Origin: Aequorivita iocasae
Lineage (GTDB): Bacteria > Bacteroidota > Bacteroidia > Flavobacteriales > Flavobacteriaceae
Direction: 5' to 3'
Length of the DNA stretch: 64,000 bases
Assembly: GCF_016757735.1 (NCBI RefSeq)
Contig: NZ_CP068439.1
Coordinates: 124,001 to 188,000, forward strand
Under the pieces are notes generated by a model. The model was not told the origin of the DNA and made no database searches. It saw only the letters and a list, made by a program, of their open reading frames with translations. The translations under genes and the position numbers were made by a program. Shown one piece after another: positions 524-54,233 of the stretch; positions within the stretch are counted from its first letter, which is position 1; the number at the start of each line of letters is the position of its first letter.

Positions 524-593
524 GTGAGCCGTGAGGCGTGAGGCGTGAGGCGTGAGCTGTGAGCTGTGAGCCGTGAGCTGTCACCCTTCACCC
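524..593. repeat. Degenerate heptamer array, 10 units
   Basis: Ten contiguous 7-base units: GTGAGCC, three GTGAGGC, two GTGAGCT, GTGAGCC, GTGAGCT, GTCACCC, TTCACCC. The array lies between the Wzt-like start codon and the stop of the four-helix-bundle gene, and its last unit includes that stop codon (588-590). Confidence 0.9.
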
Positions 594-938
594 TTTCCTG
601 TTTAAATAATTCCTATATCCTATTAATAATTTCCTGACTTTAACTAATAATTCCTGTAAGGTGCTATTCTTTTTAATAAATTGCAAACGTACTGCAATCA
701 TATATTGAGTTTCCAATTCGGCTATAGAACCTACTGCTATCGCTATAAACTGAATAAGTTCTTTATCCCCTTTCCTTCCCGAACCTTCTGCTATATTGGA
801 AGGTATGGAAACTGCAGCACGACGCATTTGACTTGTTAATCCATATCGTTCTTCTTTCGGAAATTTAGCTGTTTCTTGATAAACCAACTCAACTAAATCC
901 ATACTAAACTTCCAGACATCTAAATCTTTATGATTCAT
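588..938 (-). CDS. Four helix bundle protein (23S rRNA intervening-sequence family)
   Basis: 116 residues. It carries the family hallmarks: an N-terminal DLDVWKFSMDLVELVY helix, the conserved SIPSNIAEGSGR motif and a following helix with IQFIAIAVGSIAELE. Such proteins form all-helical pentamers and were first seen encoded in 23S rRNA intervening sequences; most are stand-alone genes in Bacteroidota and their function is not known. It sits between the ATPase and permease genes of a polysaccharide exporter, a place where no known exporter needs it, so it is probably a secondary insertion. Its stop codon lies inside a heptamer array. The family call is secure; role is unknown. Confidence 0.85.
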   Translation of the reverse strand: MNHKDLDVWKFSMDLVELVYQETAKFPKEERYGLTSQMRRAAVSIPSNIAEGSGRKGDKELIQFIAIAVGSIAELETQYMIAVRLQFIKKNSTLQELLVKVRKLLIGYRNYLNRKG

Positions 939-975
939 AACCGTTAATTATTAATCATTTCACTTTACCGAACTA

Positions 976-1003
976 TTCACGCTTCACGTCTCACCCTTCA
1001 CGC
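976..1003. repeat. Heptamer array abutting a stop codon, 4 units
   Basis: Units TTCACGC, TTCACGT, CTCACCC, TTCACGC end exactly at base 1003, one base before the permease stop codon (1004-1006). On the coding strand they read GCGTGAA-type heptamers, the same word family as at 1971-2005 and 10279-10299. Confidence 0.85.
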
Positions 1004-1849
1004 TTACGCACTCATCCTTTCAACTAAAATAGGAATCGAAATTCTATAGAACAACAAAGCAATAAAAAACAGGGGGATGCAACAAGCAATTACGATTAAA
1101 AAATAGGTGAGATGTGCTGGAGGCATGCCTACTGCCAAATCGCGGGCTGTCAAAATGATGGGGGTAAATGGGTTTAGTTCCATTACGGTTTTCATGATAC
1201 CGCTTTTGGGAATGGCATATACTACTGGCGTTACATACATTAAAAATTGCAATCCAAAGCCTATCATACGGCCAATGTCTTTATAGAGCATTCCTAAAGG
1301 GGTAATAAATAACCCGAGGGTTGTTCCAAAAAGTATTCCGCCTAAAACAGCCACAGGAAACAAGAAAAGGCTCCAGTTAAAGCCTACCCCGAAAAAAAAT
1401 ATGAAAAACAAGAGCAACAGTATTTTTATGGAACTGTTAAACAGCAGTTTGTAGATACCAGAAATAACTAGAGCCTCCTTCGGAAAGTTAATTTTTGATA
1501 AAATACCCTTAGCACTATTAGTACTGCCTATAGGCGAATTGATAGCCTCGGTTATAATGGACCACAACAAGGTACCCGAAAAGGCAAATACGGGATAGGG
1601 AATACCGGTATCGGTAACCCGTACCGTTCCTGAATTGTTAAGAAATATCCAAACAAAAGCGGTGGCTAATGGCGTTACAAAGGCCCAAATAATGCCTAGA
1701 TAACTTTGGCGGTATTGTGCCTGTATGTCGCGCTTAGCTAACTGAAACGATAAAAACCGTGACCGGGCAATATCTGCCAAACTCTCTTTGAGCAGTTTAC
1801 CAAGGCGTAGGTTACTTTCCTTTTGATAGACTTTTGTTTCCAGTTCCAT
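1004..1849 (-). CDS. Polysaccharide ABC exporter permease, Wzm/TagG type
   Basis: 281 residues, the usual length of ABC-2 type permeases of O-antigen or teichoic acid exporters. An N-terminal amphipathic stretch (RSRFLSFQLAKRDIQAQYRQSYLGIIWAFVTP region) precedes about six hydrophobic segments. The motif YRQSYLGIIWAF is characteristic of the family. It should form the membrane channel for the ATPase encoded at 1-513 and move a completed lipid-linked glycan to the periplasm. The Wza/Wzc-type proteins further along (13-16 kb) belong to a different, Wzy-dependent style of export, so two surface-glycan routes may share this locus. Start ATG at 1849 is well placed. Confidence 0.88.
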   Translation of the reverse strand: MELETKVYQKESNLRLGKLLKESLADIARSRFLSFQLAKRDIQAQYRQSYLGIIWAFVTPLATAFVWIFLNNSGTVRVTDTGIPYPVFAFSGTLLWSIITEAINSPIGSTNSAKGILSKINFPKEALVISGIYKLLFNSSIKILLLLFFIFFFGVGFNWSLFLFPVAVLGGILFGTTLGLFITPLGMLYKDIGRMIGFGLQFLMYVTPVVYAIPKSGIMKTVMELNPFTPIILTARDLAVGMPPAHLTYFLIVIACCIPLFFIALLFYRISIPILVERMSA

Positions 1850-1907
1850 GGGGTTGGGGAGAAGTGGTTTTTTCTTGACGGCTAAGATAGGGAATTTGGT
1901 TTAACTG

Positions 1908-2019
1908 GTGTCGGTTCTCGGTTCTGTGTTGTCGGTTGTCCGTTGTCCGTTGTCGGTTGTGGGTTGTGAAGCGTGAATCGTGAATCGTGAATCGTGAATG
2001 GTGAATTGTGGAATCGGTT
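1908..2019. repeat. Degenerate heptamer array, 16 units
   Basis: Sixteen consecutive heptamers without a phase break: GTGTCGG, TTCTCGG, TTCTGTG, TTGTCGG, TTGTCCG twice, TTGTCGG, TTGTGGG, TTGTGAA, GCGTGAA, TCGTGAA three times, TGGTGAA, TTGTGGA, ATCGGTT. The word drifts from TTGTCGG to TCGTGAA while the 7-base period is kept. It lies upstream of the permease gene. Confidence 0.9.
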
Positions 2020-2182
2020 CATTGGGATTCGGGATTCGTTAATTCGGGATTCGGGGTTCGTTAATTCGGGATTTGTTAATTCGGGATTTGTTGATTCGGG
2101 ATTCGTTAATTCGGGATTTGTTGATTTGGGATTCGTTGATTTGGGATTTGGGATTTGGAATTTGGAATTTGGAATTTGTTAA
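2020..2182. repeat. Mixed 7/8-base (15-base) tandem repeat
   Basis: Continues directly from the heptamer array. The text alternates 7-base and 8-base words (ATTCGTT / AATTCGGG, ATTTGTT / GATTCGGG), giving a 15-base super-unit, then returns to pure heptamers ATTTGGG and ATTTGGA near 2140-2175. The open frames here encode only five-residue repeats and are not genes. Between 2183 and the CDF stop at 2290 nothing further is seen. Confidence 0.85.
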
Positions 2183-2289
2183 TATGACCCTGAATTTTCT
2201 AAATAAACTGTCAACTTCGCACAATCTGCAGTAAGTGTTTCCACCTCATTCAAGTTGGCGCCTTTGGACAGATTTGAGTGGAACAAATA

Positions 2290-3174
2290 TTAGTGTTCGT
2301 AATTTGTTGGCTCAATGTGAATAAGCACATGGCCTAAATTGGGAATTTCTTTGCGCAGATGGTCCTTCAGCCTATGCGATAATTCATGGCCTTCCCGAAC
2401 CGGAATCTCCCCATCCACAATCGCGTGCAGATCCACATGATATTCCATTCCTGCTTTTCTAATAAAACACTTCTCGGTTCCTTTTATCCCTTTCACCTTC
2501 ATGGATTCTTCCCGTATCTCTTCCAAGAGATCGTCATAAATATGTTCGTCCATAATCTCTCCCAAGGCCGGTCTGAAGATAAGGTAGCTATTATAAAGAA
2601 TAAAGCCCGAGGCCAGGAGTGCAGCCCAATCATCGGCCGTTTCATAGCCTTTTCCAAAAATTAAGGCGATTGAAATGCCCAGAAAGGCCATAACGGAAGT
2701 AATAGCATCGCTTCTGTGGTGCCAGGCATCTGCCTTTAGGGAGGAGCTGTTGGTAAGTTTGCTCTTGTTCAGTACATATCGATAGGAGCCTTCCTTCCAC
2801 AAAATGATAAGTCCGAGTACAATAAGGGTCCAAGTTTCCGGAATTTTGTGTGGGGTTCGGATGTTAATAATACTTTCATAGGCGATTACAGTAGCCGAAG
2901 TAACCAAAAAAGCTACAACCACAAAGGTAATCAAGGGCTCTATGCGGGAATGACCGTAGGGATGGTTTTCATCTGGGGGGCGCTGGGCATATTTGATACC
3001 AAAAAGTACAAACAAAGAGGAAAATACATCGGTGGTAGATTCAATGCCATCTGCTATCAATGCATAGGAATTGCCCAAAAAGCCTGAGACCAATTTAATT
3101 GCCGCCAAGAGTACATTGCCCACTATACTGAAATAGGATGCCTTAATTGCCGATTTGACTGTTGCAGACTCCAC
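2290..3174 (-). CDS. Cation diffusion facilitator (CDF) family transporter
   Basis: 294 residues with the CDF plan: about six transmembrane segments in residues 10-205 followed by a cytoplasmic ferredoxin-like metal-sensing domain. The metal-site motif ALIADGIESTTD in helix 2 and HHRSD in helix 5 supply the expected Asp/His ligands, and HPYGHSRIEPL is a family signature. It should exchange Zn, Fe, Mn or a similar divalent cation for protons across the inner membrane; HHRSD replaces the HxxxD of zinc exporters, so specificity is uncertain. It is the last gene of a three-gene operon, six bases after the preceding stop. Confidence 0.92.
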   Translation of the reverse strand: MESATVKSAIKASYFSIVGNVLLAAIKLVSGFLGNSYALIADGIESTTDVFSSLFVLFGIKYAQRPPDENHPYGHSRIEPLITFVVVAFLVTSATVIAYESIINIRTPHKIPETWTLIVLGLIILWKEGSYRYVLNKSKLTNSSSLKADAWHHRSDAITSVMAFLGISIALIFGKGYETADDWAALLASGFILYNSYLIFRPALGEIMDEHIYDDLLEEIREESMKVKGIKGTEKCFIRKAGMEYHVDLHAIVDGEIPVREGHELSHRLKDHLRKEIPNLGHVLIHIEPTNYEH

Positions 3175-3180
3175 TGCTAT

Positions 3181-3690
3181 TTATTTAACAAATTCAGCAC
3201 AATCCGCTGAAGGTTTATAAGTACCCGCACCCTGTTGATAGACTAAACTTGCGCCTAAGTGGCCAGTATAGATTAAGCCTCCCAGAGCCGCGGTAAGTAA
3301 AATAAGCACTCCAAATTTTATAAATTTTGAAAAAGTACTTGGGGAAAAAAATTTAACCATAATTAAACCCAAAGCGCCAGAATAAGCAAAGAGGGTGGCA
3401 TATGCCCACCATGAATGCTCCTGCAGCACTTTTGGATCACATATTTTTCTTACCTCAACCGAATATGCAATTTCCCCTGTATAGATAGCGACCCAACCGG
3501 ATATAACCCCAATGGTCAATAGTACCATAACGAGTTTTCCGAGAAACAAACGATGGGTGGAACTACATACCCCATAAACCATGGCCGTAAGAGAGGCCAG
3601 AAACAAGGTAGCTATGGGTAAGTGTACCGATAGCGCATGCCAAACTTCCTCTCTCCAGATAGAGGGAATTTCCGGAGCCATTAACATCAT
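3181..3690 (-). CDS. DUF2231-like membrane protein
   Basis: 169 residues with four predicted transmembrane segments. The opening HALSVHLPIATLFLAS resembles the HP-x-x-HFP-type start of DUF2231 proteins, and the end GHLGASLVYQQGAG is also typical. DUF2231 members are uncharacterised inner-membrane proteins, often near heavy-metal or haem-copper genes. It sits between a lipoprotein and a CDF exporter with six-base gaps on each side, so it is probably co-transcribed and may take part in metal homeostasis. That role is inference. Two start codons (MM) are adjacent, the first is used here. Confidence 0.7.
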   Translation of the reverse strand: MMLMAPEIPSIWREEVWHALSVHLPIATLFLASLTAMVYGVCSSTHRLFLGKLVMVLLTIGVISGWVAIYTGEIAYSVEVRKICDPKVLQEHSWWAYATLFAYSGALGLIMVKFFSPSTFSKFIKFGVLILLTAALGGLIYTGHLGASLVYQQGAGTYKPSADCAEFVK

Positions 3691-3696
3691 CGGTAA

Positions 3697-4017
3697 TTAA
3701 TCCAGTATCTTGACCGAAACGGGAACGTTTTTATTTCCTTCCTTTGTTACCGTAACCTCTACTTTTCCATTTTCTTTTAAGGATTCAAAATTAGTAGTTT
3801 GGCCATCGGAAGTCATTAGTTGAGTTGCGTCAGTGAAATAAAGCTCAATAAGTTTATCGTCTGCCGTTCTAACATAGATTTCCTTTTCACCCGGCTCTAC
3901 TTCTTCTGCTACACCTTGGTAGATTCCTGCTTCAACCACATCAGTGTTCTTGTTTTCTCCGCAGGATGTAAATAAGAAGGTTAATCCAAGGAAAAGGCCT
4001 AAAATAAGTTTTTTCAT
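3697..4017 (-). CDS. Small lipoprotein of a metal-transport operon
   Basis: 106 residues from the ATG at 4017, chosen because it opens a clean lipoprotein signal (MKKLILGLFLGLTFLFTSCGENK, lipobox FTSC); an upstream in-frame ATG at 4053 would add residues before the signal and is unlikely. The mature part is a small acidic beta-rich domain (YVRTADDKLIELYFTDAT) with no family I recognise. It begins the operon with the DUF2231-like and CDF genes, so it may bind or sense metal in the periplasm or outer membrane. Function is not known. Confidence 0.75.
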   Translation of the reverse strand: MKKLILGLFLGLTFLFTSCGENKNTDVVEAGIYQGVAEEVEPGEKEIYVRTADDKLIELYFTDATQLMTSDGQTTNFESLKENGKVEVTVTKEGNKNVPVSVKILD

Positions 4018-4285
4018 AATGTAATACTTTTGGTTTTTTTCAAAAATAAACATAAGAAGTGGAAGGCGTAGGAGATTTATAGTAAAATTAAGATATTTTG
4101 GAGAGGGAGACGGGTGACGGAGATCTGCTAGTTAAGGGTTTTGGAATTTGGGATTTGGGATTTGTTAATTCGGGATTTGGGATTGGGGATTTGTTAATTT
4201 GTTAATTCGGGATTCGTTATTCGGGATTTGTTGATTCGGGATTTGTTAATTCGGGATTTGTTGATTCGGGATTCGTTGATTCGGG

Positions 4286-4313
4286 ACCTGCCTGCCAGAG
4301 GCACGACAGGCGG
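4286..4313. repeat. 28-base GC-rich element, copy 1
   Basis: A 28-base block starting ACCTGCCTGCC and ending ACAGGCGG, inserted exactly after a GGG of the surrounding low-complexity array. It can form a short stem (GCCTG with CAGGC) and an internal TGCC-AGA-GGCA hairpin. Its length equals four heptamers, so it does not break the array's phase. Confidence 0.85.
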
Positions 4314-4387
4314 ATTTGGGATTTGGGATTTGGGATTTGTTAATTTGTTAATTCGGGATTTGTTAATTTGTTAATTCCGGATTTGGG

Positions 4388-4415
4388 ACCTGCCTGCCAG
4401 AGGCACGACAGGCGG
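4388..4415. repeat. 28-base GC-rich element, copy 2
   Basis: Identical in sequence to the block at 4286-4313 and also placed directly after a GGG, 102 bases further on. Confidence 0.85.
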
Positions 4416-4440
4416 GTTTGGGGTTTGGGATTTGGAACCT

Positions 4441-4496
4441 CGTACTTCGTCGTTCGTACTTCGTTGTTCGTACCTCGTCGTTCGTACCTCGTACTT
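4441..4496. repeat. Heptamer array, 8 units
   Basis: CGTACTT, CGTCGTT, CGTACTT, CGTTGTT, CGTACCT, CGTCGTT, CGTACCT, CGTACTT with no phase break. It continues the low-complexity stretch but with a wholly different word. Confidence 0.9.
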
Positions 4497-4513
4497 CCAC
4501 TGTGAGGTCGAGT

Positions 4514-5496: not shown

Positions 5497-5534
5497 GATT
5501 TGGGTAGGGTTTTAAAGTAGGTAAAAACACTGTT

Positions 5535-8101: not shown

Positions 8102-8105
8102 GGCT

Positions 8106-9952: not shown

Positions 9953-10250
9953 AAAAAAATGTTTTAGATTAAAACGAAATTGTTATGATAAGGGGCGAAA
10001 CAATGATATGGAAGTAGTTAAAAAAAAGCAAATTTTTTAAACTATACTTGATGTTGTGGTCTTTTTATTACAAAATACTCAAAATCTTCGTTAAGAAGTT
10101 TTTGATTTTCGACAAAAGGCTAAAATATGTAGGAAAATTACTTGCGCTGTAAGTGCATTAATTGTAGGAATTTAAACTTTAACATTTTGAAATTGTTAAA
10201 ATTGGGGGAAATTCTGCTGAAAGCAGTATTTGGGGTGGGTTTTTTAAGAA

Positions 10251-10362
10251 GTGAGATGTGAATAGTGAGACGTGAAAAGTGAAGCGTGAAGTGTGAAGTG
10301 TAGTTGTGGGTTAAAATGAGAACAGACACTAGACACTAGACACAAGACACAAGACAACAAAT
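10251..10362. repeat. Degenerate heptamer array, 16 units
   Basis: Sixteen in-phase heptamers: GTGAGAT, GTGAATA, GTGAGAC, GTGAAAA, GTGAAGC, GTGAAGT twice, GTAGTTG, TGGGTTA, AAATGAG, AACAGAC, ACTAGAC twice, ACAAGAC twice, AACAAAT. The word changes from GTGAAGC to ACTAGAC without losing the period. It ends on the first base of the epimerase stop codon (10362-10364). Confidence 0.9.
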
Positions 10363-17573: not shown

Positions 17574-19442
17574 GTGAATTACCTTTCAGTAGAAAATATC
17601 TCCAAGTCCTTCGGGATGCGGGTTTTGTTTGAAAATATTTCCTTCGGAATAAACGAAGGGCAAAAAATAGGTTTTGTGGCCAAAAACGGAACCGGAAAAA
17701 CATCGCTTCTCAATATAATTGCGGGGAACGATAAAGCCGATACCGGCAATGTTGTTTTCAGAAAAGGGCTGAAGATAGCCTATCTACCCCAAGAACCGGA
17801 TTTGGATCCAAAATTAACGGTAGAACAAACCATTTTTTCTTCAGATAATCCGATTCTCAAAATAATTGAGAATTACGAGCACGCAATCGAAAACCCTGAC
17901 GATTCCGAAGCATACCAAAAAGCCTTTGACGCAATGGATGCGCATCACGCTTGGGATTTTGAAACGCGTTATAAGCAGATTCTTTTTAAACTGAAATTGG
18001 AAGATTTACAGGCAAAAGTTGGCAATTTGAGCGGCGGACAGAAAAAGCGACTCGCACTGGCGAATGCACTGCTTACTACACCGGATTTGCTGATAATGGA
18101 TGAGCCCACCAACCACTTAGACTTGGAAATGATAGAATGGCTGGAAAATCTATTTGCGAAGGAAAATTTCACGCTGTTTATGGTTACGCACGACCGTTAT
18201 TTTTTGGAGCGCGTTTGCAATGAAATTGTGGAATTGGACGAAGGCACACTTTACAGTTATAAAGGAAATTACAGTTATTACCTCGAAAAACGTGAAGCTA
18301 GAATAGAAAACGAAGCCACCGAAACCGGAAAGGCGAAGCAACTTTTTAAAAAGGAATTGGAATGGATGCGCCGCCAACCCAAAGCGCGAACTACCAAAAG
18401 CAAAAGCCGGATTGATGATTTCCACGAAATAAAGGACCGCGCCAGCAAACGCCGCAACGACCACCAAGTGCAACTGGAATTGAACATGGAACGCATGGGC
18501 ACCAAGGTGGTGGAGCTTCATAAGATATCAAAATCATTTGGGGATAAAGTATTGTTGGACAAGTTTGAATATAACTTCAACCGTGGCGAACGCGTTGGAA
18601 TTATAGGAAAGAATGGAACTGGGAAATCTACCTTTTTAAATATTCTCACAGGAGCATTAAAACCCGATTCGGGGAAAGTGGTTGTGGGTGAAACGGTACA
18701 ATTCGGTTATTATACCCAAGCTGGAATCAACATAAAAGAAGGCCAAAAAGTAATTGATGTAATCCGTGAATACGGCGATTATATTCCCCTGAAAAAAGGA
18801 CGGCAGATTTCGGCATCGCAACTGTTGGAGCGGTTTCTTTTTGATCCCAAAAAACAATACGATTTTGTGGAAAAATTGAGCGGTGGTGAACGCAAGCGAC
18901 TTTATTTATGTACCGTTCTCATCAAAAACCCAAACTTTTTGATTCTCGATGAGCCTACGAACGATCTTGATATTGTGACGCTGAATGTTTTGGAAAGTTT
19001 TCTTTTGGATTTTCCCGGATGCCTTTTGGTAGTGAGCCACGACCGGTATTTTATGGATAAAATTGTAGATCATCTTTTTGTTTTCAGAGGAAATGCCGAG
19101 GTGGAGGATTTCCCTGGAAATTATACAGATTTTAGAGTTTACGAAGACAGTAATATACAGGAAAAACGCGAGGCCAGTGAGGCAGCACCAAAGGTAAAAA
19201 AAGACTGGAAGCAGGATAATACTCCCGCAAAACTGAGCTATAACGAGCAGAAGGAATACCAAAAACTGGAAAAGGAAATTGCCAATCTGGAAAAGGAGCG
19301 CGAAGAACTTCAAAATAAATTTGCCACGGAAAACTGGGACGGCGAAGAAATTGATAAGCAATCCATAAAACTACAGGAGATTATAGATACCATTGAAGCA
19401 AAGGAAGAACGCTGGTTTGAGCTTTCAGCGAAAATGGAGTAA
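17574..19442 (+). CDS. ABC-F family ATPase (Uup-like)
   Basis: 622 residues with two ABC domains and no membrane segments. The first has GFVAKNGTGKTS (Walker A, about 33-44) and LSGGQKKRLAL; the second has GKNGTGKST and LSGGERKRLYL. The P-site linker between them is basic (MRRQPKARTTKSKSRIDDF). A C-terminal coiled coil (residues about 555-622) is the Uup-type domain. ABC-F proteins act on ribosomes or stalled complexes. The start is GTG: it gives the expected NYLSVENISKSFG beginning and no better ATG exists upstream. It is followed by heptamer repeats three bases after the stop. Confidence 0.93.
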   Translation: MNYLSVENISKSFGMRVLFENISFGINEGQKIGFVAKNGTGKTSLLNIIAGNDKADTGNVVFRKGLKIAYLPQEPDLDPKLTVEQTIFSSDNPILKIIENYEHAIENPDDSEAYQKAFDAMDAHHAWDFETRYKQILFKLKLEDLQAKVGNLSGGQKKRLALANALLTTPDLLIMDEPTNHLDLEMIEWLENLFAKENFTLFMVTHDRYFLERVCNEIVELDEGTLYSYKGNYSYYLEKREARIENEATETGKAKQLFKKELEWMRRQPKARTTKSKSRIDDFHEIKDRASKRRNDHQVQLELNMERMGTKVVELHKISKSFGDKVLLDKFEYNFNRGERVGIIGKNGTGKSTFLNILTGALKPDSGKVVVGETVQFGYYTQAGINIKEGQKVIDVIREYGDYIPLKKGRQISASQLLERFLFDPKKQYDFVEKLSGGERKRLYLCTVLIKNPNFLILDEPTNDLDIVTLNVLESFLLDFPGCLLVVSHDRYFMDKIVDHLFVFRGNAEVEDFPGNYTDFRVYEDSNIQEKREASEAAPKVKKDWKQDNTPAKLSYNEQKEYQKLEKEIANLEKEREELQNKFATENWDGEEIDKQSIKLQEIIDTIEAKEERWFELSAKME

Positions 19443-19444: not shown

Positions 19445-19533
19445 ATGCTATAGGCTATAAGCTATAAGCCGTAAGCAACTATTTATGAAATATGTATTTT
19501 AGCCTACAGCATAAAGCCTAAAGCTTATAGCCC
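19445..19533. repeat. Two opposed heptamer runs forming an imperfect hairpin
   Basis: TGCTATA, GGCTATA, AGCTATA, AGCCGTA, AGCAACT (19445-19479) face TAGCCTA, CAGCATA, AAGCCTA, AAGCTTA, TAGCCCT (19499-19533). The second run is roughly the reverse complement of the first, so the transcript could fold. It fills the gap between the ABC-F stop and the methyltransferase start. Confidence 0.8.
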
Positions 19534-19539
19534 TAAAAA

Positions 19540-20333: not shown

Positions 20334-20382
20334 TTTTCTCTCTATTCTCTATTCTCTTCTCTATTTTCTTTTCTCTTTTACC
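20334..20382. repeat. Heptamer run, 7 units
   Basis: TTTTCTC, TCTATTC twice, TCTTCTC, TATTTTC, TTTTCTC, TTTTACC in phase, just after the methyltransferase gene. Confidence 0.7.
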
Positions 20383-20406
20383 TTTCCGCAAATTCCTTTC
20401 CCACAT

Positions 20407-20441
20407 AACTTTAAACTTTTAACTTTGAACTTTTAACTAAC
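20407..20441. repeat. Heptamer run, 5 units
   Basis: AACTTTA, AACTTTT, AACTTTG, AACTTTT, AACTAAC in phase, upstream of the LolD-like gene. Confidence 0.75.
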
Positions 20442-20494: not shown

Positions 20495-21196
20495 ATGAGC
20501 TTAGTAATTAAAATTCGAAATATCACGCGCGACTTCCCACTGGGGAATGAAGTGGTTAAAGTTTTAAAGGGAATAGATCTGGACATTGAGCGCGGCGAAT
20601 ACGTAGCGCTGATGGGCCCTTCCGGTTCGGGAAAATCTACTTTGATGAACCTCTTGGGATGTTTGGACACGCCAACTTCGGGCAGCTACGAACTCAACGG
20701 AAAGGACGTCAGCAATATGACGGATGACGAATTGGCTGAAATTCGCAATAAGGAAATTGGCTTCGTTTTTCAAACTTTCAATCTCTTGCCCCGTACCACC
20801 GCACTTGAAAATGTGGCGCTACCGATGGTTTATGCAGGTGCTTCAAAAAGCGAACGCACTGAACGCGCCAAAGAAGTTTTAACAAATGTGGGGCTAGCTG
20901 ACCGAATGGACCATAAACCAAACCAACTTTCCGGTGGGCAGCGCCAGCGGGTAGCAGTAGGAAGAGCTTTGGTGAATAAGCCTTCCATTATTTTGGCAGA
21001 TGAGCCTACGGGAAATTTGGACTCAAAGACCTCGGAAGAAATAATGAATCTTTTTAACGAAATCCACAAAGCTGGCAATACAGTAATTCTAGTTACCCAC
21101 GAAGAGGATATTGCTGAAAACGCCCATAGAATTATTCGCTTGCGGGATGGAATTGTGGAAAGTGATACTAAGAAGGAAGTAGTGAGTAGTGAGTAG
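20495..21196 (+). CDS. ABC transporter ATPase, LolD/MacB type
   Basis: 233 residues. Walker A is GPSGSGKST, signature [15 protein letters not shown], Walker [12 protein letters not shown], followed by the switch His in VTHEED. The [11 protein letters not shown] segment is diagnostic of the LolD/MacB/FtsE clade that works on lipoproteins, efflux or cell division. No membrane partner lies next to it, so its permease must be encoded elsewhere. The final codons (VVSSE) and the stop are made of GTAGTGA heptamers, so the natural tail may have been altered by the repeat. Confidence 0.9.
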
Positions 21197-21220
21197 TGAG
21201 TAGTGAGTAGTGAGTAGTGA
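21179..21220. repeat. Perfect heptamer array, 6 x GTAGTGA, through a stop codon
   Basis: Six exact GTAGTGA units. The first two and a half encode the end of the LolD-like protein; its stop codon (21194-21196) lies in the third unit. Confidence 0.95.
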
Positions 21221-21263
21221 GTAAAAATATTATAACCCATTTCGCATTTCCTCTTTCCTGTTT

Positions 21264-21534: not shown

Positions 21535-22107
21535 ATGAAAATATATACCAAAACCGGCGATACAGGCACCACTGCCCTTTTCGGCGGTACACGTGTTCCC
21601 AAGCACAACATCCGTATTGAGAGTTACGGTACGGTTGATGAACTTAACTCATACCTCGGTCTGATCAGGACACAGGAAATTGACCCACGTAGCAAAGAAA
21701 TATTGACCCAAATTCAAGATAGACTTTTCACCTTGGGCGCCATTTTGGCCACAGACCCTGAAAAGGCAACTTTAAAAAGTGGAAAGGAACGCCTAAACAT
21801 TCCGAAAATTGAGGAAGAAGACATCACGCTTTTAGAAAATGAAATGGACCGTATGAACGATGCCCTACCACCAATGACACATTTTATATTGCCTGGCGGA
21901 AATACTACCGTGTCATATTGTCACATAGCCCGTACTGTCTGCCGCCGTGCAGAGCGGCGTACCACACTTTTGAATGAAAATGAGCCTATTGATGAACGGG
22001 TGCTGATCTATTTAAACCGACTATCTGACTACCTATTTGTGCTGGCACGAAAGTTGTCTAAAGACACAAACGCAGAAGAGACGCAATGGATTCCGAAGAA
22101 GTTGTGA
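21535..22107 (+). CDS. Cob(I)yrinic acid a,c-diamide adenosyltransferase, PduO type
   Basis: 190 residues. The start KIYTKTGDTGTTALFGG is the ATP-binding signature of PduO-type adenosyltransferases; RIESYGTVDELNSYLG, ARTVCRRAERR and YLNRLSDYLFVLAR contain the further conserved Arg, Glu and Asp residues. It adds the 5'-deoxyadenosyl group to corrinoids, making coenzyme B12, which methylmalonyl-CoA mutase needs; the MeaB-type chaperone of that enzyme is encoded at 31832-32914. It has its own well-formed promoter. Its stop lies at the start of a heptamer array. Confidence 0.93.
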   Translation: MKIYTKTGDTGTTALFGGTRVPKHNIRIESYGTVDELNSYLGLIRTQEIDPRSKEILTQIQDRLFTLGAILATDPEKATLKSGKERLNIPKIEEEDITLLENEMDRMNDALPPMTHFILPGGNTTVSYCHIARTVCRRAERRTTLLNENEPIDERVLIYLNRLSDYLFVLARKLSKDTNAEETQWIPKKL

Positions 22108-22164
22108 GTTGTCGGTTGTCGGTTGTCGGTTGTCGGTTGTCGGTTGTCGGTTGTCGGTTGTCGG
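22102..22164. repeat. Heptamer array, TTGTGAG plus 8 x TTGTCGG
   Basis: Eight exact TTGTCGG units (22109-22164) preceded in phase by TTGTGAG, which contains the adenosyltransferase stop codon, and followed by TTGTGAA. The same word occurs at 1929-1956, on the same strand, 20 kb away. Confidence 0.95.
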
Positions 22165-22300
22165 TTGTGAAAAATGAGAAAATGTATTGATTTTCAATAT
22201 TTTCGTTAAAAAACCGAGCTATAAGTAAATATGTAATTCACTTACAATCAATCATTTAAAAACGTTCTTTAAAATATAGCAGAAATAATTTGGATTTTTC

Positions 22301-22355: not shown

Positions 22356-22577
22356 ATGTACTGGACATTAGAATTGGCATCCTATTTAAGCGATGCGCCC
22401 TGGCCCGCAACCAAAGACGAATTGATTGATTACGCGATCAGGACCGGTGCTCCACTGGAAGTAGTGGAAAACCTTCAGGCTATTGAAGACGAGGGAGACT
22501 CCTATGACTCTATTGAAGAGATATGGGCAGACTACCCAACCGACGATGATTATCTTTGGAACGAGGATGAATATTAA
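22356..22577 (+). CDS. DUF2795 protein
   Basis: 73 residues, strongly acidic at the C-terminus (DYPTDDDYLWNEDEY). The segment ELASYLSDAPWPATKDELIDYAIRTGAPLEVVENLQ is the DUF2795 domain, a small helical fold of unknown function that is common and highly expressed in Bacteroidota. It has a strong promoter and its own hairpin terminator, so it is a single-gene transcript. Family call firm; role unknown. Confidence 0.88.
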   Translation: MYWTLELASYLSDAPWPATKDELIDYAIRTGAPLEVVENLQAIEDEGDSYDSIEEIWADYPTDDDYLWNEDEY

Positions 22578-27817: not shown

Positions 27818-29236
27818 CTATTGAAGTGAAACATTACTGTAAGTTGAATTTATAGTGATGGTTTTGTTAGAACCATTATTTTGGTTAAACCCTTTCACTA
27901 AAACCCGATCGGCACTTTTGGATTCTTTTAGTTGAAGTGATTTAGGATACTTCAACGTAGATTTTTTACCCGTAAAGTAAAATGAAAATGCACCGCTAGG
28001 TATTTTCACTTTGGCATCAGTATTCTCTAAACGTATATCAAGCGTTTCAAATCCATCAGAGACCTTATCAATTTTTAAGTTCCCAAAAGAACCCGATAGG
28101 AATGCCTGATTGGATATGTTACCAATACGTACGTCGCTGGAATTCGCTTGAAGATTTATGTTCTGAACATTATCAATCTTACAATTATCTACATATTTTA
28201 CATTCAAGCCGCCTTGTTTCCATACATTCACTATAACCGGCGCATAAGATGCATTGATGAGGGTTTGCCCCCCATCAATGCTATTTGCCGTAAATGGCGT
28301 GTAATTTAAATTGGCTTTTATATTATTGGCATCTGCCATTTTGAGATCGCCGTGGCGCACATTAACTTCAGTCTTGGTATTTTTTGGAAGGCGAATTATA
28401 AGGGTTTTCTTTCCCTTAGCGCTGTTCCCACTATTGTTACGGTTTCCCTGAATAACAATAGCGGTTCCGTGTGGGCTTTTGGTAACGGTTTTGGTGTAAT
28501 TGCCTCCCTCATCGTCGTACTCCTTTTCAATCTCGTTTGCCCAAGCTTCCATTTTTTTACCGTATTCTTCGCCCCAGGCTTCCATCCGTTTTCCAAAATC
28601 TTCGCCCCAAGCTTCCATTCTTTTTCCATAGGCTTCGCCTATGCTGTCTGCTCGTTTTTCATCCCAGGACTCCTCGAAGCGTTTGCCCCATTCCTCCATT
28701 CGTTTTTCAAAATCCTTCCCAAAATTTTTGTCCATTTGGGCTTCAAACTTTTTCATATAGCCCTCTTCGTCTTTTTTAAACTCTTCATAATCAAACTGAA
28801 TGTCACCTATGCTTTCCAATAAATCTGCAGGTAGCGGCGGCACTTTTATATTTTGTATCATAGGCATAACCATATCTTCCATTAGCGGGCCAATAAATTC
28901 AAGGTTAGGCATATCGCTCATTGGAAAAGGTTGGTTGCCGGCATTGGATGTTACAGTTATTTTTTTACTGTTTCCGGTCACCTCCAGATCCCAATTTTTC
29001 ATCAGTTGTTCCTTTTGACTCTCAGAAAGGTTATCCCCTTCAATAAAGGCTTCAACTTCTACCTTGTTTTTGTTCCAGGTTTCAAAAACTACATTTGTAA
29101 AAGATGTATTTACAGAAATTTCTACATTGTCAGAGACATTGAAGCTCTCCACATATTTTGTTTGTGAGTAGCCAAAAGTTGTGGCAAATGTTAGTACTAC
29201 AAGGGTACTACGTTTGAATAGCTTTAAATTCTTCAT
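27818..29236 (-). CDS. Exported DUF4097 (adhesin-domain) protein with 11-residue helical repeats
   Basis: 472 residues. Signal peptide to about residue 25 (LVVLTFATTFGYSQ). Residues 30-100 and 250-472 are beta-rich with the stacked-turn pattern of DUF4097 putative adhesins (IRLPKNTKTEVNVRHGDLKMADANN). Between them, residues 150-240 are a charged helical region with hendecad repeats: EKRMEEWGKRF (177-187), GKRMEAWGEDF (204-214), GKRMEAWGEEY (215-225), GKKMEAWANEI (226-236). It overlaps the preceding membrane-regulator gene by 29 bases, so it is the last gene of a sigma-factor operon and probably a target or sensor of envelope stress. Confidence 0.78.
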   Translation of the reverse strand: MKNLKLFKRSTLVVLTFATTFGYSQTKYVESFNVSDNVEISVNTSFTNVVFETWNKNKVEVEAFIEGDNLSESQKEQLMKNWDLEVTGNSKKITVTSNAGNQPFPMSDMPNLEFIGPLMEDMVMPMIQNIKVPPLPADLLESIGDIQFDYEEFKKDEEGYMKKFEAQMDKNFGKDFEKRMEEWGKRFEESWDEKRADSIGEAYGKRMEAWGEDFGKRMEAWGEEYGKKMEAWANEIEKEYDDEGGNYTKTVTKSPHGTAIVIQGNRNNSGNSAKGKKTLIIRLPKNTKTEVNVRHGDLKMADANNIKANLNYTPFTANSIDGGQTLINASYAPVIVNVWKQGGLNVKYVDNCKIDNVQNINLQANSSDVRIGNISNQAFLSGSFGNLKIDKVSDGFETLDIRLENTDAKVKIPSGAFSFYFTGKKSTLKYPKSLQLKESKSADRVLVKGFNQNNGSNKTITINSTYSNVSLQ

Positions 29237-42244: not shown

Positions 42245-42272
42245 TCTTTCTAATTAATAGAATCTGCAAAAT

Positions 42273-42342
42273 CACCTACTCACCTATTCACCTATTCACC
42301 TATTCACCTATTCACCTATTCACCTATTCACCTATTCACCTA
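42273..42342. repeat. Octamer array, CACCTATT, about 8.75 copies
   Basis: One CACCTACT, seven exact CACCTATT units and a partial copy. The period is 8, the only clear exception to the 7-base rule in this window. It begins seven bases after the stop codon of the small acidic-protein gene (minus strand) and lies upstream of the PAP2 gene. Confidence 0.95.
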
Positions 42343-42580: not shown

Positions 42581-42622
42581 AATTGGAATTTGTTTATTGC
42601 TAATTGTTAATTGTTAATTGTT
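42581..42622. repeat. Heptamer array through a stop codon, 6 units
   Basis: AATTGGA, ATTTGTT, TATTGCT, AATTGTT three times, in phase. The MATE gene's last codons (LTINN) and stop (42600-42602) are built from these units. Confidence 0.85.
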
Positions 42623-50390: not shown

Positions 50391-50409
50391 TTCGCCCCCC
50401 CTAGCGCAC

Positions 50410-50426
50410 GCCTGCCGGATGCAGGC
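50410..50426. repeat. Short GC hairpin at the right edge of the island
   Basis: GCCTGC and GCAGGC pair around CGGAT. It follows CGCCCCCCCTAGCGCACGC (50393-50411), which resembles GTGCCCCCCCTGGCACGC at 51239-51256, so a similar GC-rich text frames the HU-like gene. Confidence 0.6.
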
Positions 50427-50480
50427 AAGTTTGCCACGTGTGCCCGACAACTTCACAACCCCAATACACACCCCACAAAA

Positions 50481-50590
50481 AAAACAAAGCCACATTTCAT
50501 ATAAAACATGGCTTAGTTTAGGGTGAAACATAGCCATGTTTTGGGTAAAACATAGCTATGTTTTTGTAAAAAGAAGGCTATCTTTCGGCA
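50481..50590. repeat. Five tandem 22-base repeats, running into the HU-like gene
   Basis: Units start at 50481, 50503, 50525, 50547 and 50569. Each has the core AAAACAT(A/G)GC and, in units 2-5, (T/C)TATGTTT-like right halves; units 3 and 4 are palindromic, and 50547-50564 is a perfect 18-base palindrome. Unit 5 contains the HU-like stop codon (50578-50580) and the last codons of the gene. Roles as a bidirectional terminator or protein-binding array are both possible. Confidence 0.85.
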
Positions 50591-50973: not shown

Positions 50974-51247
50974 ACTTAAAAAATTTAAAGATTAATAAAA
51001 AAATTAAATGGTCCTAAAATAAAAGCGTTAGCAAAACGGCAACTTCTACAGGGAAAGGCGCCAAGACGCCATACCGTATGTATGTTCCGCGAACCAACGC
51101 GTTCGCTACAAATAAACTGGGGAGAAAAGATTAAACCGTTTGGGTTTCAGTATTTTAAAAATAGGAAGGGAAGGCGAAAAAACAAAATGTTTTTTTGATT
51201 TATTGTGAAAATACCCCGCTAGCGCGAACATCCTACTTGTGCCCCCC

Positions 51248-51307
51248 CTGGCACGCTTTGCAAAAGCGCGCCAGATTAAACGCTTTATAAAAGTGCGCCA
51301 GAGTGAG
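51248..51307. repeat. Two tandem 27-base hairpin units
   Basis: Units at 51254-51280 and 51281-51307 share CGCTTT..AAAAG(C/T)GCGCCAGA. The first is part of a 12-base stem (CTGGC-A-CGCTTT against AAAGCG-C-GCCAG, 51248-51274) with one mismatch; the second forms a shorter hairpin. The gap 50974-51425 around it has a GCGAAC...GTTCGC hairpin at about 51093-51110 and no other gene. Confidence 0.8.
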
Positions 51308-51425
51308 TCTCCCTACTTACCTTCATTAAAGAATAATCCTACCAAATATGCCACACACGTATCAACAATATTCTTTACTTTTAACCCTACTAAAACAACT
51401 ACAACCAAAACCCTGCGCTAGCTTA

Positions 51426-51806
51426 ATGAAACTGTATAGCCTAACAAAAGTTACCTTCCTTTTTATTGCAATGAGTGCCCTGCTATCCTGCAACAATGAC
51501 GAAAAAAATAACAACACAGATTCAACCAAAAGCTTACTTGGCGTATGGCAACGCAGCGACTTTAGCGAGGAATATGACTACAAACTGTATTTTAATACGG
51601 AAGGCAACGGCTACAGTACCGAATACATAGCCCAGCCGGGCGGCACCGCAATTTCAAACTTCAGGCCCTTTAACTGGAGCAGCAGCGAAACCACCCTTAC
51701 CCTAGATTATGAGGACGGCGCTACCGATGCCACCCCCTTTACCATAAACGCCGCCGGACAATTGCTGGCTTCGGGTTTAGGCAATGTACCCTTCAATAAG
51801 CTATAG
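51426..51806 (+). CDS. Lipocalin-like small lipoprotein
   Basis: 126 residues from the ATG at 51426, which gives a clean lipoprotein signal (SLTKVTFLFIAMSALLSC, then NNDEKNNN); a frame open upstream to 51348 lacks this. The mature domain is beta-rich and short: LGVWQRSDFSEEYDYKLYFNTEGNGYSTEY, WSSSETTLTLDYED and FTINAAGQLLASG, the pattern of small lipocalin-like proteins of Bacteroidota. Probably attached to the outer membrane. Function unknown. Confidence 0.7.
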   Translation: MKLYSLTKVTFLFIAMSALLSCNNDEKNNNTDSTKSLLGVWQRSDFSEEYDYKLYFNTEGNGYSTEYIAQPGGTAISNFRPFNWSSSETTLTLDYEDGATDATPFTINAAGQLLASGLGNVPFNKL

Positions 51807-51927
51807 TGTTTTCTGCTATACTGGTTTAGCGCTGCTCGTGTGTGCACTCGTCTGTTACAAAACTCTTAAATCATCTTTAAAAAAATCAATTTAATGTAAC
51901 TTGCCGCCCTATAAAAAAGTGAAAAAT

Positions 51928-53772
51928 ATGCAAGACGCCCAAATGCACAATTATATAAAAGACGTATTAAAAAATATGCCTTCAGACTGGCTAAACCTAA
52001 CTACGCACAGGCTTGATATTTATGATGAAAGCTTGGCAAAAACGCAATTCCTAGATCAGTTTGAAAACTTATACCATGACAATAATGCCGAAACGGCGGC
52101 TCTAAAAAAACTGCCCACGGCCTATGATTATATCCGCTTGGGTCACCCGCTTTCCAGTGTTTTGGAATGGGCAATTGCCAAGGCGAACCACCTAAAGCCG
52201 GAAAACGTGATCAGTTTTGCTTCCAATACGGTTCCTATTTTGGCAATCCTGCGGAAGAATTTATTGGTGAATAAAAACACCCAAATCCTTTATACCGATA
52301 CCCTGCCCTCTTTTTTCGATGCTGAAATAATACGAGATGTTTACAATTACGATTTTGAATTGAAACAGATTGATAACGCCTCAAACATCCCTGAATATAA
52401 CGGTAGTACTGTTCTCATTTCACAAAAAGATGAAATCGGCGCGTTGGATCTCAACCCCAACGTAGATTTTTACATCAACCTGTACGGCTCGCTCGGGAGT
52501 ATTTTAACGGTTTATGGCGAAAAGAACGAAACCTACGTTTCCGAAATTCAGCACGTACGAAGAAGGGAAACCATTGCCATGACGCCCGCCAATTGTGAAA
52601 TTGCTCTACAAGCATTAGTAGCAAACACTGCTATTGACCTTCCCACAACCAATGTAGCAGAAGCCAAAAAGAACGTTTTAAAATCTATACAGAAAATCAC
52701 GGGCTCCCCTACCACTCCACTTGTGGCTTCCAGCGGACTTTCCATTCAGTATGCCATTATGATGGGGCTCATTCACAATGCACAGGAAAACCATAAGGAA
52801 AAGGCTATCAAATTTCTTGTACCGCCCAACTGCTATGGCGGCACCAACGACCAAGCAAGACGTGTGGCCGCGTGCCTTAACAATGTTGAAATAGTTGATT
52901 TGCCGGTAGATGGTGATAACGATATGGTACAAAGCATTGATACCGTTTTAAATAAAGTAGCTGCCGAAGATGCCGTTGCTTACATCATTGCCGAAATTCC
53001 TACAAACCCACGAGTTGAAGTCCCAGATTTGCAGCAATTAAAGGCTGTGTTAAGCAAAGAGCGCAAAACCGAAAATGGCGAAACCGCAATCGACCCCGTA
53101 TTTATTCTCGATCAAACCTTTTGCCCAAACTATCAGTTTTTGGGTGAAGGGGAAATACTATCCACGGTTCGGGCTATTTCTTATGCGAGTGGCTCCAAAT
53201 TTCCGAGTGGCGGAAAATGTACCGCAGGCTACGTAGTGGGAAACACCAAGACCCGTGACCTAATGGAAAAAATAGCGTTGCACCTTACCCTTTGTGATAA
53301 CGAGGCTACCGCACTTCAGTATGAAATATTGGCCGAACAACTGCCGTCTATGAACCAACGTATTATTGATGCTTATAAAAATACCCGTGAATTTGTAAAC
53401 TTTATAAAAGAAACCCTGCCGGATGCAAAAATCAATTTTGTTTCAGATGAACTGGCAGCGCAAGGCTTTACCCCATCGGTATTTTCACTGGACCTTCCCA
53501 CAAAAGGAAACACCGATGCTGAAAGAGAAGCCTATAAAAGAGCTCTGAACTTGAAGCTCATCAATTTAATGATTACGGAAATTCCGACAGAGAGTAAGTT
53601 TTGTGTGAGCTATGGGCAGTTAAAGGGGTGTTATTGGACTATTCCGGCAACCTCCACGCAGGGCACCACCAAGGAAGGCGACAAGGATTATATTGTACGT
53701 GCCTCCCTGTCGGGCGATATGGATCTGGAACGTCATAAAAAAGTGTTTTTAAAATTTGTTGATAATATTTGA
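51928..53772 (+). CDS. PLP-dependent Cys/Met-metabolism-type enzyme
   Basis: 614 residues from the ATG at 51928; an in-frame TTG at 51901 and GTG at 51919 are alternatives. The PLP-binding lysine lies in SYASGSKFPSGGKCTAGYVVG; GGTNDQARRVAACLNNVEIVDLP and IIAEIPTNPRVEVPDL match the Cys/Met-metabolism fold-type I group, as do SSGLSIQYAIMMGL. It is longer than typical (about 400 residues) because of an N-terminal extension of roughly 200 residues, as in a known group of Bacteroidota proteins annotated with this domain. The substrate is not known. Confidence 0.8.
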   Translation: MQDAQMHNYIKDVLKNMPSDWLNLTTHRLDIYDESLAKTQFLDQFENLYHDNNAETAALKKLPTAYDYIRLGHPLSSVLEWAIAKANHLKPENVISFASNTVPILAILRKNLLVNKNTQILYTDTLPSFFDAEIIRDVYNYDFELKQIDNASNIPEYNGSTVLISQKDEIGALDLNPNVDFYINLYGSLGSILTVYGEKNETYVSEIQHVRRRETIAMTPANCEIALQALVANTAIDLPTTNVAEAKKNVLKSIQKITGSPTTPLVASSGLSIQYAIMMGLIHNAQENHKEKAIKFLVPPNCYGGTNDQARRVAACLNNVEIVDLPVDGDNDMVQSIDTVLNKVAAEDAVAYIIAEIPTNPRVEVPDLQQLKAVLSKERKTENGETAIDPVFILDQTFCPNYQFLGEGEILSTVRAISYASGSKFPSGGKCTAGYVVGNTKTRDLMEKIALHLTLCDNEATALQYEILAEQLPSMNQRIIDAYKNTREFVNFIKETLPDAKINFVSDELAAQGFTPSVFSLDLPTKGNTDAEREAYKRALNLKLINLMITEIPTESKFCVSYGQLKGCYWTIPATSTQGTTKEGDKDYIVRASLSGDMDLERHKKVFLKFVDNI

Positions 53773-53825
53773 GTAAATTAGGGTTTGAAAATGGCATATA
53801 AAAGTTTGCCAAAAAATAGCCTTAA

Positions 53826-54176
53826 ATGAAAAACGAAAGAGTCTATAAAATGTCTTTTGCGGGTGTGTACCCACATTACATCACCAAAGCTGAAATAAAA
53901 GGCCGCACCAAAGAAGAGGTAGATATCATCATCCGTTGGTTAACGGGTTATACACAAGACCAACTTCAGCAAGTTTTGGACAACAAAACCAATTTTGAGG
54001 ATTTCTTTGCCCAGGCCCCAGCGCTAAATCCCAACGTTTCCAAAATTACGGGCGTAATCTGCGGCTATCGCGTAGAAGAAATTGAGGAGCCGCTAATGCA
54101 AAAAATTCGTTATCTAGATAAGCTTATAGACGAGCTGGCAAAAGGCAAATCGATGGAAAAGATTTTAAGGGAATAG
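53826..54176 (+). CDS. DUF2200 protein
   Basis: 116 residues, almost the whole DUF2200 domain: [44 protein letters not shown] and [52 protein letters not shown]. The family is small, helical and of unknown function. Single gene, followed four bases after the stop by a GCAATTA array. Confidence 0.9.
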
Positions 54177-54180
54177 CTTT

Positions 54181-54233
54181 GCAATTAGCAATTAGCAATT
54201 AGCAATTAGCAATTAGCAATTAGCAATTAGCAA
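54181..54233. repeat. Perfect heptamer array, 7 x GCAATTA
   Basis: Seven exact GCAATTA units (54181-54229) and a partial copy, beginning four bases after the DUF2200 stop codon. The following text to 54260 keeps a loose 7-base rhythm (CTATCCA, ACAATCC). Confidence 0.95.

What the first reader, a model, noticed from the sequence alone, without database searches (positions are those of the whole stretch)
524..54233. Intergenic DNA made of degenerate repeats with a 7-base period but no shared sequence
At about twenty sites, intergenic DNA can be cut into successive 7-base words with no phase slip, for example 16 in a row at 1908-2019 and at 10251-10362, 8 at 22109-22164, 7 at 54181-54229, 6 at 21179-21220 and 8 at 4441-4496. 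The word differs at each site and even drifts within one array (TTGTCGG to TCGTGAA; GTGAAGC to ACTAGAC), yet the period holds. One array has period 8 (42273-42342) and two mix 7 and 8. Heptanucleotide STRR repeats are known in cyanobacteria, but with fixed words; here the conserved property is the period. This suggests a slippage mechanism with a fixed step that re-seeds on new sequence, or selection for a period-7 RNA or DNA structure.
Basis: partly seen in the sequence, partly recalled or inferred. Interest (0 to 1): 0.75.

Follow-up and report, generated by a model that had tools for sequence, protein, structure and literature searches.

The report
Seven-base repeats growing between genes
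DNA between this bacterium's genes is dotted with short stretches in which a seven-letter word repeats; the word differs from place to place and from species to species but the length of seven stays, which is a known bacterial tendency, most likely a copying slip that works best at seven letters.

Summary
In 64 kb, lag 7 gives 15 runs against 0-2 at every other lag below 14, and none at lag 7 in three simulated sequences; in 464 kb of the same genome lag 7 gives 50 runs, lag 8 ten, lags 5 and 9 none. Words differ from site to site. One quoted "16 in a row" (10251-10362) is really two arrays around a spacer. In related species the same gene junctions carry the same word in another copy number, another heptamer, an octamer, or only the unexpanded seed; 8 of 11 length differences inside arrays are multiples of 7. 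Chance supplies more two-copy 5- and 6-bp pairs than 7-bp pairs, yet in the own genome, of units 5-13, only 7 and rarely 8 reach three or more perfect copies. Arrays pile up just after stop codons and are sparse between divergent genes. Best reading: nearly neutral slippage whose growth step is period-selective, with drift of the word by mutation. Heptanucleotide dominance in bacterial repeats, and a polymerase-footprint slippage hypothesis, are already in print (PMC4679880, PMC4692102, passages). So it is a dense example of a known kind. What sets the length 7 stays unexplained.

The parts
524..595 (.). GTGAGCC-type heptamer array followed by TTCACCC units
976..1019 (.). degenerate TTCACGC heptamer array
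1908..2016 (.). heptamer array drifting in phase from TTGTCGG to TCGTGAA
2027..2179 (.). mixed 7+8 array (ATTCGGG / ATTCGTTA, period 15 and 30) ending in GATTTGG heptamers
4136..4435 (.). mixed 7/8/15 arrays with a 102-bp tandem duplication (1.9 copies) that includes a GC-rich stretch
4440..4497 (.). TCGTACT/TCGTCGT heptamers with a 14-bp higher order
10249..10298 (.). GTGANNN heptamers x7
10324..10356 (.). AGACACA/AGACACT heptamers x4.7, a separate array
19447..19476 (.). GCTATAA heptamers directly after an ABC protein gene (17574-19442); ACTTAAC-like heptamers at this junction in G017, G005 and G012
19501..19537 (.). degenerate AGCCTAA heptamers
20339..20385 (.). TCTCTAT heptamers
20406..20438 (.). 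AACTTTT heptamers, same word and length in G003 and G010
21178..21223 (.). perfect AGTAGTG array (6.6 copies) spanning the stop codon of an ABC transporter gene
22100..22168 (.). GTTGTCG array grown out of the 3' end of the cobalamin adenosyltransferase gene; seed only in G017, two units in G005, an octamer array in G010 and G012
42272..42342 (.). period-8 TCACCTAT array upstream of the PAP2 gene; also period 8 in G010
42590..42622 (.). TTGTTAA heptamers
54181..54233 (.). perfect GCAATTA array (7.6 copies), 4 bp after the stop codon of the DUF2200 gene

Best explanation
The arrays are intergenic heptanucleotide simple sequence repeats made by replication slippage. A chance pair of similar words seven bases apart, often in the tail of a gene and just past its stop codon, is the seed. 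The nascent strand slips by one unit (sometimes two or more), adding or removing 7 bp at a time. Point mutations arise in single units and spread to neighbours by further slips, so the word drifts while the period stays. Old arrays decay and new words take over at the same junction. The period is set at the growth step: pairs of every spacing exist, but in this genome only spacing 7 (and weakly 8) climbs to three or more perfect copies. Shown here: period specificity, copy-number change mostly in multiples of 7, word turnover, local spread of unit variants, position, no consistent fold. Inferred: that slippage rather than recombination is the event, and that arrays are mostly neutral. Not explained here: why 7; [quoted passage not shown]
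For: Sharp lag-7 peak. In 76 kb of own intergenic DNA, sites with perfect units: lag 5 has 83 two-copy sites (chance 117.6) and none with 3+; lag 6 has 48 (38.2) and none; lag 7 has 51 (13.6) and 25 with 3+; lag 8 has 12 (5.4) and 2; lag 9 has 2 (2.0) and none. With arrays masked, lag-7 runs of 7 or more are 21 against 13.3 expected. Gaps inside arrays in own/G010 and own/G003 alignments: 7, 14, 21, 21, 42, 7, 21, 70 (8 of 11), the other three 8, 2, 13. Site 22107: seed in G017, 2 units in G005, 8.7 in own, GGGTTATT octamers in G010 and G012, none in G004, G008, G016; site 21196: AGTAGTG x6.6, x5.6, x7.4 in own, G003, G010, GTCGTGA in G004, GTGATTT in G012, TTTGGAA in G005. Unit identity falls from 0.864 for neighbours to 0.802 at seven units apart while shuffled order stays at 0.815-0.833 (63 arrays); without the G016 hot region 0.877 to 0.768 against 0.794-0.823 (40 arrays). 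Positional bias to stop codons and sparseness between divergent genes.
Against: No strain series, long reads or mutation-accumulation data were available, so slippage is not observed as an event. The period filter is not absolute: period-6 arrays (GAAATC, ATCGAA and the like) occur in relatives G002 and G016 (5 of 39 intergenic arrays in the G016 hot region), and period-11 arrays in the own genome and elsewhere. With arrays masked, longer two-copy lag-7 runs are in 2.5-fold excess (own, runs of 8 or more: 10 against 4.0), so a bias at the first duplication, or decayed arrays, is not excluded. Arrays sit at the same junction in relatives more than chance (7 of 12 own array regions also have one in G010, 2 of 65 otherwise); descent explains part, but a functional or hotspot effect there is not excluded. 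14 of 51 arrays on one strand and 4 of 51 on the other fold better than shuffles at z below -2. Three of 11 gaps inside arrays are not multiples of 7. Four same-order genomes sampled at 40-60 kb show no lag-7 run.
Confidence: 0.8

Rival explanations
1. Selection keeps a period-7 element after genes, for example for RNA binding (cold-shock proteins), termination or message stability, with freedom in the word. (The rivals overlap with each other and with the best explanation, so the odds need not sum to one.)
For: Arrays abut stop codons (15 of 40 own, 14 of 31 genus, 8 of 23 other tandem-junction arrays within 10 bp) and recur at orthologous junctions. PMC4679880 (passages) discusses cold-shock proteins binding heptamer repeats.
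Against: G008 and G016 have no heptamer array at any of the 4 own-array junctions compared in each, and other relatives lack it at several; no consistent fold; period 8 replaces 7 at site 22107 in G010 and G012; 63 of 77 junctions compared with G010 have none in either genome. Seeding from gene tails plus intolerance of promoters would explain the position.
Confidence: 0.12
2. The arrays are remains of mobile or copied composite elements that carry heptamers with them.
For: In G016 a 120-kb stretch holds 24 long arrays, 23 of them GTTGTCK-type and on the + strand; of these 23, 13 have an octamer module, 10 AAAGGAC and 13 a GC-rich inverted-repeat module within 260 bp downstream, 11 the octamer plus another. 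The window's 4136-4435 array holds a 102-bp duplication.
Against: Arrays listed in the own genome have mostly unrelated words; sites 22107 and 21196 show growth in place from the gene tail.
Confidence: 0.07
3. Unequal recombination between repeats, not polymerase slippage, changes copy number.
For: Multiples of 7 up to 70 bp in one step fit either process.
Against: Arrays of 14-60 bp are short for homologous recombination (established knowledge, not tested), and recombination gives no reason for one preferred unit length.
Confidence: 0.1
4. Chance or assembly artefact.
For: Collapsed or expanded repeats are common assembly faults in general (recalled).
Against: Simulated sequence gives no lag-7 run; E. 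coli K-12 (100 kb) and S. meliloti pSymB (50 kb) give none by the same method; the same arrays occur in other genomes.
Confidence: 0.02

Closest known systems
Long simple sequence repeats of 5-11 bp units, heptanucleotides the most abundant class (Mrazek et al. 2007, known here through passages of PMC4679880 and PMC4692102; the paper itself is not held)
   Same: Unit length; proposed slippage origin tied to the length of DNA held by the polymerase
   Different: As described in those passages the survey counted repeats longer than expected per genome; here degenerate arrays, orthologous word turnover, the seed series and the growth filter are added
TAACTGA repeats of Beggiatoaceae, Cyanobacteria and five Bacteroidetes (PMC4679880, abstract and passages)
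   Same: Intergenic heptamers; in A. sublithincola and Gramella forsetii other heptamer repeats share those intergenic regions, and for three of the four sets the nearest relative has a shorter region without obvious repeats
   Different: One fixed word, in the main genome mostly just upstream of start codons; here many words, most often just after stop codons
GGGNATC / GGGGA(C/T)T repeats of Xanthomonas and Nostoc (PMC4692102, passages and Discussion)
   Same: Heptamers, mainly non-coding, under-represented between divergent genes, variable in length and sequence between close relatives
   Different: One G-quadruplex word family per genome; most arrays here have no G-run in each unit
Cyanobacterial STRR heptanucleotides (name recalled; PMC4692102 mentions three tandem heptanucleotides in Calothrix)
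   Same: Heptanucleotide tandem repeats
   Different: Few fixed words per genome (recalled, not tested)
Huang and Mrazek 2014 survey (PMC4060949, part 1 of section 3.1 with Table 2)
   Same: Table 2 gives the pattern 7n3 a positive median category in Bacteroidetes (0.75), Chloroflexi 1.0, Deferribacteres 1.0, Planctomycetes 2.0 and Verrucomicrobia 0.5, and zero in the other 18 groups
   Different: Perfect repeats only, no comparison of orthologous sites in the parts seen

Membership tests
Heptanucleotide long simple sequence repeats (LSSR5-11) | Tandem units of 5-11 bp, longer than chance | tested here: met
   50 lag-7 runs in 464 kb, 0 simulated
Heptanucleotide long simple sequence repeats (LSSR5-11) | Unit 7 is the most abundant class | tested here: met
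   51 of 77 intergenic arrays in 580 kb have fundamental period 7, 10 period 8, 5 period 11
Heptanucleotide long simple sequence repeats (LSSR5-11) | Mainly non-coding | tested here: met
   47 of 50 lag-7 runs intergenic by a mechanical gene mask
Heptanucleotide long simple sequence repeats (LSSR5-11) | Copy number changes by whole units between relatives | tested here: met
   8 of 11 gaps inside arrays are multiples of 7
Heptanucleotide long simple sequence repeats (LSSR5-11) | Made by strand slippage | not testable with these tools
   needs clones, reads or a reporter assay
TAACTGA / STRR type fixed-word repeats | One or a few words repeated genome-wide | tested here: not met
   Words differ at most sites; three exact TAACTGA units are absent from the own genome and present in 4 of 20 genus genomes. 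One degenerate own array (chromosome 227398) has TAACTGA as majority word. STRR words themselves were not searched
G-quadruplex heptamers of Xanthomonas/Nostoc | GGG or GGGG in every unit | tested here: not met
   Met by some GATTTGGG-type arrays, not by GCAATTA, AGTAGTG, GTTGTCG, GCTGTAA, TTCACTA and most others listed
Phase-variation repeats | In promoters or the 5' part of surface genes | tested here: not met
   As a class, arrays lie nearer upstream stop codons and are sparse between divergent genes; single exceptions such as 42272-42342 not excluded

The most novel reading that the evidence does not exclude
Bacteroidota carry a physical ruler in DNA replication or repair that tolerates or makes loops of 7 (less well 8, and perhaps 11) nucleotides, so that any chance seed with that spacing grows while 5, 9 and 10, and mostly 6, do not; it acts most at gene 3' ends, perhaps coupled to transcription or termination, and so keeps writing new period-7 DNA after genes.
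Probability: 0.15. Interest if true: 0.7.

Novelty: new member of a known kind. Interest (0 to 1): 0.4.

Why it matters
Why bacteria favour seven-base repeats has been noted since 2007 and, in the passages seen, has a hypothesis but no test. This genus is a good natural experiment: arrays are dense, the same junction can be read as seed, short array, long array or replaced word in sister species, and the data point to the growth of arrays, more than the first duplication, as the step that prefers 7. That turns the question into a measurable one (rate of unit gain against unit length).

Tried and rejected
Replication-strand bias: array GC skew does not follow local GC skew (rho -0.06, p 0.62, 69 arrays). 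Word as a strand-specific code: no sign of it, words vary freely. Uniform RNA fold: MFE is zero in 34% of 102 strands, mean z -0.94 and -0.23 over 51 arrays against mononucleotide shuffles, no common structure. Period set wholly at the first duplication: with arrays masked the lag-7 excess is small for runs of 7 or more, and lag 9 is as high in the genus set (30 against 15). Rfam over the window: no match at gathering score. tRNAs: none. Mismatch repair loss as cause: three MutS-domain matches are present in the genome, so no simple loss; MutL not checked. A lag spectrum for other phyla with whole genomes could not be run; the controls are only 100 kb of E. coli K-12 and 50 kb of pSymB. My first notes gave the G010/G012 array at site 22107 as a heptamer; it is an octamer (corrected). 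In one search the regions at site 21196 extracted from G010 (2,639 bp) and G005 (3,857 bp) contain extra inserted DNA, so those were read at the array end only and fell out of the counts.
Full report
WHAT WAS CHECKED. Tandem Repeats Finder and direct reading confirm the arrays at most quoted coordinates. A lag scan with a match score of +1 and a mismatch cost of 2 finds 15 runs at lag 7 in the window, one each at lags 6 and 8, two at lag 12, none at lags 2-5, 9-11 and 13, and harmonics at 14, 21 and 28; three first-order Markov simulations of the window gave none at lag 7. The window is 124001-188000 of a single-contig 3.35-Mb chromosome. In the window plus 20 stretches of 20 kb spread over that chromosome (464 kb) lag 7 has 50 runs (47 intergenic), lag 8 ten, lag 11 four, lag 6 two, lags 5 and 9 none; one simulation gave none at any lag from 2 to 40. 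With 28 pieces (580 kb) grouped by fundamental period, the 77 intergenic arrays are 51 of period 7, 10 of 8, 5 of 11, 4 of 14, 2 of 15, 2 of 21 and one each of 2, 20 and 22. Corrections are in the observation check; the main one is that 10251-10362 is two arrays round a spacer, not a drifting 16-mer.

WORDS. Perfect or near-perfect arrays in the own genome include GCAATTA, AGTAGTG, GTTGTCG, GCTGTAA, AAGCGAA, TTCACTA, AACCTGC, CAAATCC, GAAATAC, CTCATTA, AGCTACG. Neighbouring arrays in one intergenic region may carry different words (2116065-2116221 of the chromosome has three). Array density is uneven: 3-3.5 per 10 kb in five of six 20-kb stretches sampled between 1.69 and 2.72 Mb, none in 11 of the 28 pieces, and intergenic DNA is more abundant in those five (15.6-25.2%).

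BREADTH. In 80 named Bacteroidota loci around secA (1.58 Mb; the best 80 of 589 candidates) the spectrum is similar but weaker: intergenic arrays of period 7: 21, 14: 7, 22: 7, 8: 6, 11: 6, 15: 3, 6: 2, 10: 2, 21: 2, 19: 1, 9: 0; 15 of 80 loci hold an intergenic period-7, -14 or -21 array. Same-genus genomes G001, G002 and G016 (60 kb each) have 2, 5 and 2 lag-7 runs; same-order genomes G019, G021 and G028 (60 kb each) and G027 (40 kb) have none. E. coli K-12 (100 kb) and pSymB (50 kb) have none at any lag from 4 to 22. The printed survey PMC4060949 (part of section 3.1 and Table 2 read) puts Bacteroidetes among five groups of 23 with a positive median for the three-unit heptamer pattern.

ORTHOLOGOUS SITES. 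At the 3' end of the cobalamin adenosyltransferase gene (window 22107) G017 has only GTTGTGAGTTGTCCTTTGTGA, G005 has two GTTGTCG units in that frame, the own genome 8.7, G003 one or two, G010 and G012 a GGGTTATT octamer array, and G004, G008 and G016 nothing. After the ABC transporter gene (21196) the own genome, G003 and G010 have AGTAGTG at 6.6, 5.6 and 7.4 copies, G004 GTCGTGA, G012 GTGATTT, G005 TTTGGAA, G017 a 14-mer, G008 two short units, G016 none. There the array, or what stands in its place, encodes the last residues and the stop codon of the protein: the tails after ESDTKK differ between species (EVVSSE, VAVDSRS, EVMSRDL, EVVSRKS, EVVKQ). Across 77 junctions compared with G010, 7 have a heptamer array in both, 5 in own only, 2 in G010 only and 63 in neither (Fisher p 1e-5); among the 7, two have the same word, one differs by one base in the best rotation and four by two to four. 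Small sets for seven other relatives (5-11 junctions each) show the same kinds of change. Gaps inside arrays in own/G010 and own/G003 alignments are 7, 14, 21, 21, 42, 7, 21, 70, and 8, 2, 13; outside arrays, intergenic gaps were 1 or 2 bp in 33 of 35 cases, one of 7 and one of 8.

GROWTH FILTER. In 76 kb of own intergenic DNA, sites with perfect units: lag 5, 83 two-copy sites against 117.6 expected and none with three or more; lag 6, 48 against 38.2 and none; lag 7, 51 against 13.6, and 25 with three or more; lag 8, 12 against 5.4, and 2; lag 9, 2 against 2.0, and none; lag 11, 4 against 0 and none. In the 80 named loci lag 7 has 8 sites with three or more, lag 8 four, lag 5 two (chance 1.0), lag 11 one (harmonics such as 14 and 16 also score). 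With arrays masked, lag-7 runs of 7 or more are 21 against 13.3 (own), 30 against 23 (genus), 10 against 11 and 20 against 14.7 in the two outer sets; runs of 8 or more are 10 against 4.0, 14 against 5.7, 4 against 4.3 and 11 against 3.7; lag 9 in the genus set is as high (30 against 15). So pairs of other spacing are plentiful and mostly do not grow, while a small bias at the first step or traces of decayed arrays remain possible. Neighbouring units are 86.4% identical, units seven apart 80.2%, with shuffled order at 81.5-83.3% (63 arrays of 8 or more units); without the G016 hot region 87.7% and 76.8% against 79.4-82.3% (40 arrays): local duplication with drift. Against a strict filter: period-6 arrays exist in G002 and G016.

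POSITION. Arrays per 10 kb of intergenic DNA in the own genome: tandem junctions 11.7, convergent 6.3, divergent 4.1; in the genus set 7.0, 7.8, 1.2; in the other loci 2.6, 1.8, 0. In tandem junctions the mean place is 0.32, 0.31 and 0.27 on a scale from upstream stop (0) to downstream start (1), with 15 of 40, 14 of 31 and 8 of 23 within 10 bp of the stop. The genus set holds orthologues of own arrays, so these are not independent, and gene ends are mechanical: a word with a stop codon will itself end a frame that runs into it. PMC4692102 reports the same sparseness between divergent genes for its repeats.

MECHANISM. The evidence fits slippage whose productive step is mainly 7 (less 8), neutral or nearly so, limited by promoters and coding frames. 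What fixes 7 is not shown. [quoted passage not shown] 2007, with the proposal that 7 nt might be the length interacting with DNA polymerase; PMC4692102 says much the same. Mismatch repair alone would hardly do it: PMC4060949 (passage) says it is efficient on loops of 1-3 bp and falls off with length, so loops of 5, 6, 9 and 10 should escape too (inference).

IDENTITY. The relative G001 has a contig of 3,520,671 bases, which I recall as the size of Aequorivita sublithincola; PMC4679880 reports two sets of TAACTGA repeats in that species, and G001 has two places with three or more exact copies. If right, the window lies in Aequorivita, where heptamer-rich intergenic regions missing in a relative (A. 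capsosiphonis) were already noted in print.

VERDICT. Real, strong, and a dense case of a known kind. The added value is the orthologous series and the growth filter. That these two are new rests only on searches of an open-access library, where I read passages of a few papers; the 2007 paper was not held.

Noticed in passing
G016:C1:2945001-3065000 (L160-L165): Relative G016 has 24 long heptamer arrays in 120 kb, 23 of one word family (GTTGTCK) and on the + strand whatever the gene direction; 11 of the 23 are followed within 260 bp by an octamer module plus AAAGGAC or a GC-rich inverted-repeat module: a composite element that seems to have been copied from junction to junction. Exact TTGTCKG x3 matches in all of G016: 164 forward, 8 reverse.
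   Followed up: partly
window 4241-4435: 102-bp tandem duplication with a GC-rich stretch (CCTGCCTGCC...) inside the heptamer arrays; no perfect inverted repeat of 6 bp or more within 30 bp was found there, but an intergenic region of G017 has the palindrome CCTGCCTGCCGGCAGGCAGG.
   Followed up: partly
window 50502-50571: Three copies of a 22-bp unit (TAAAACATAGCTATGTTTTGGG, largely self-complementary) between convergent frames, terminator- or REP-like.
   Followed up: no
window 28540-28639: 33-bp unit repeated three times inside a coding frame.
   Followed up: no
own chromosome 2116889-2117269 (L044): The same 45-bp GATTGTTG octamer block occurs three times, 168 bp apart.
   Followed up: no
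own chromosome 1902689, 2303526, 2717267: Period-11 arrays with related words (CTATAAACATA, ATACGCTATAA), a third favoured period also seen in other Bacteroidota loci.
   Followed up: partly
window 22356-22577: A 73-residue frame between the heptamer array and secA is conserved in all 8 congeners compared, in contrast to the array beside it.
   Followed up: no
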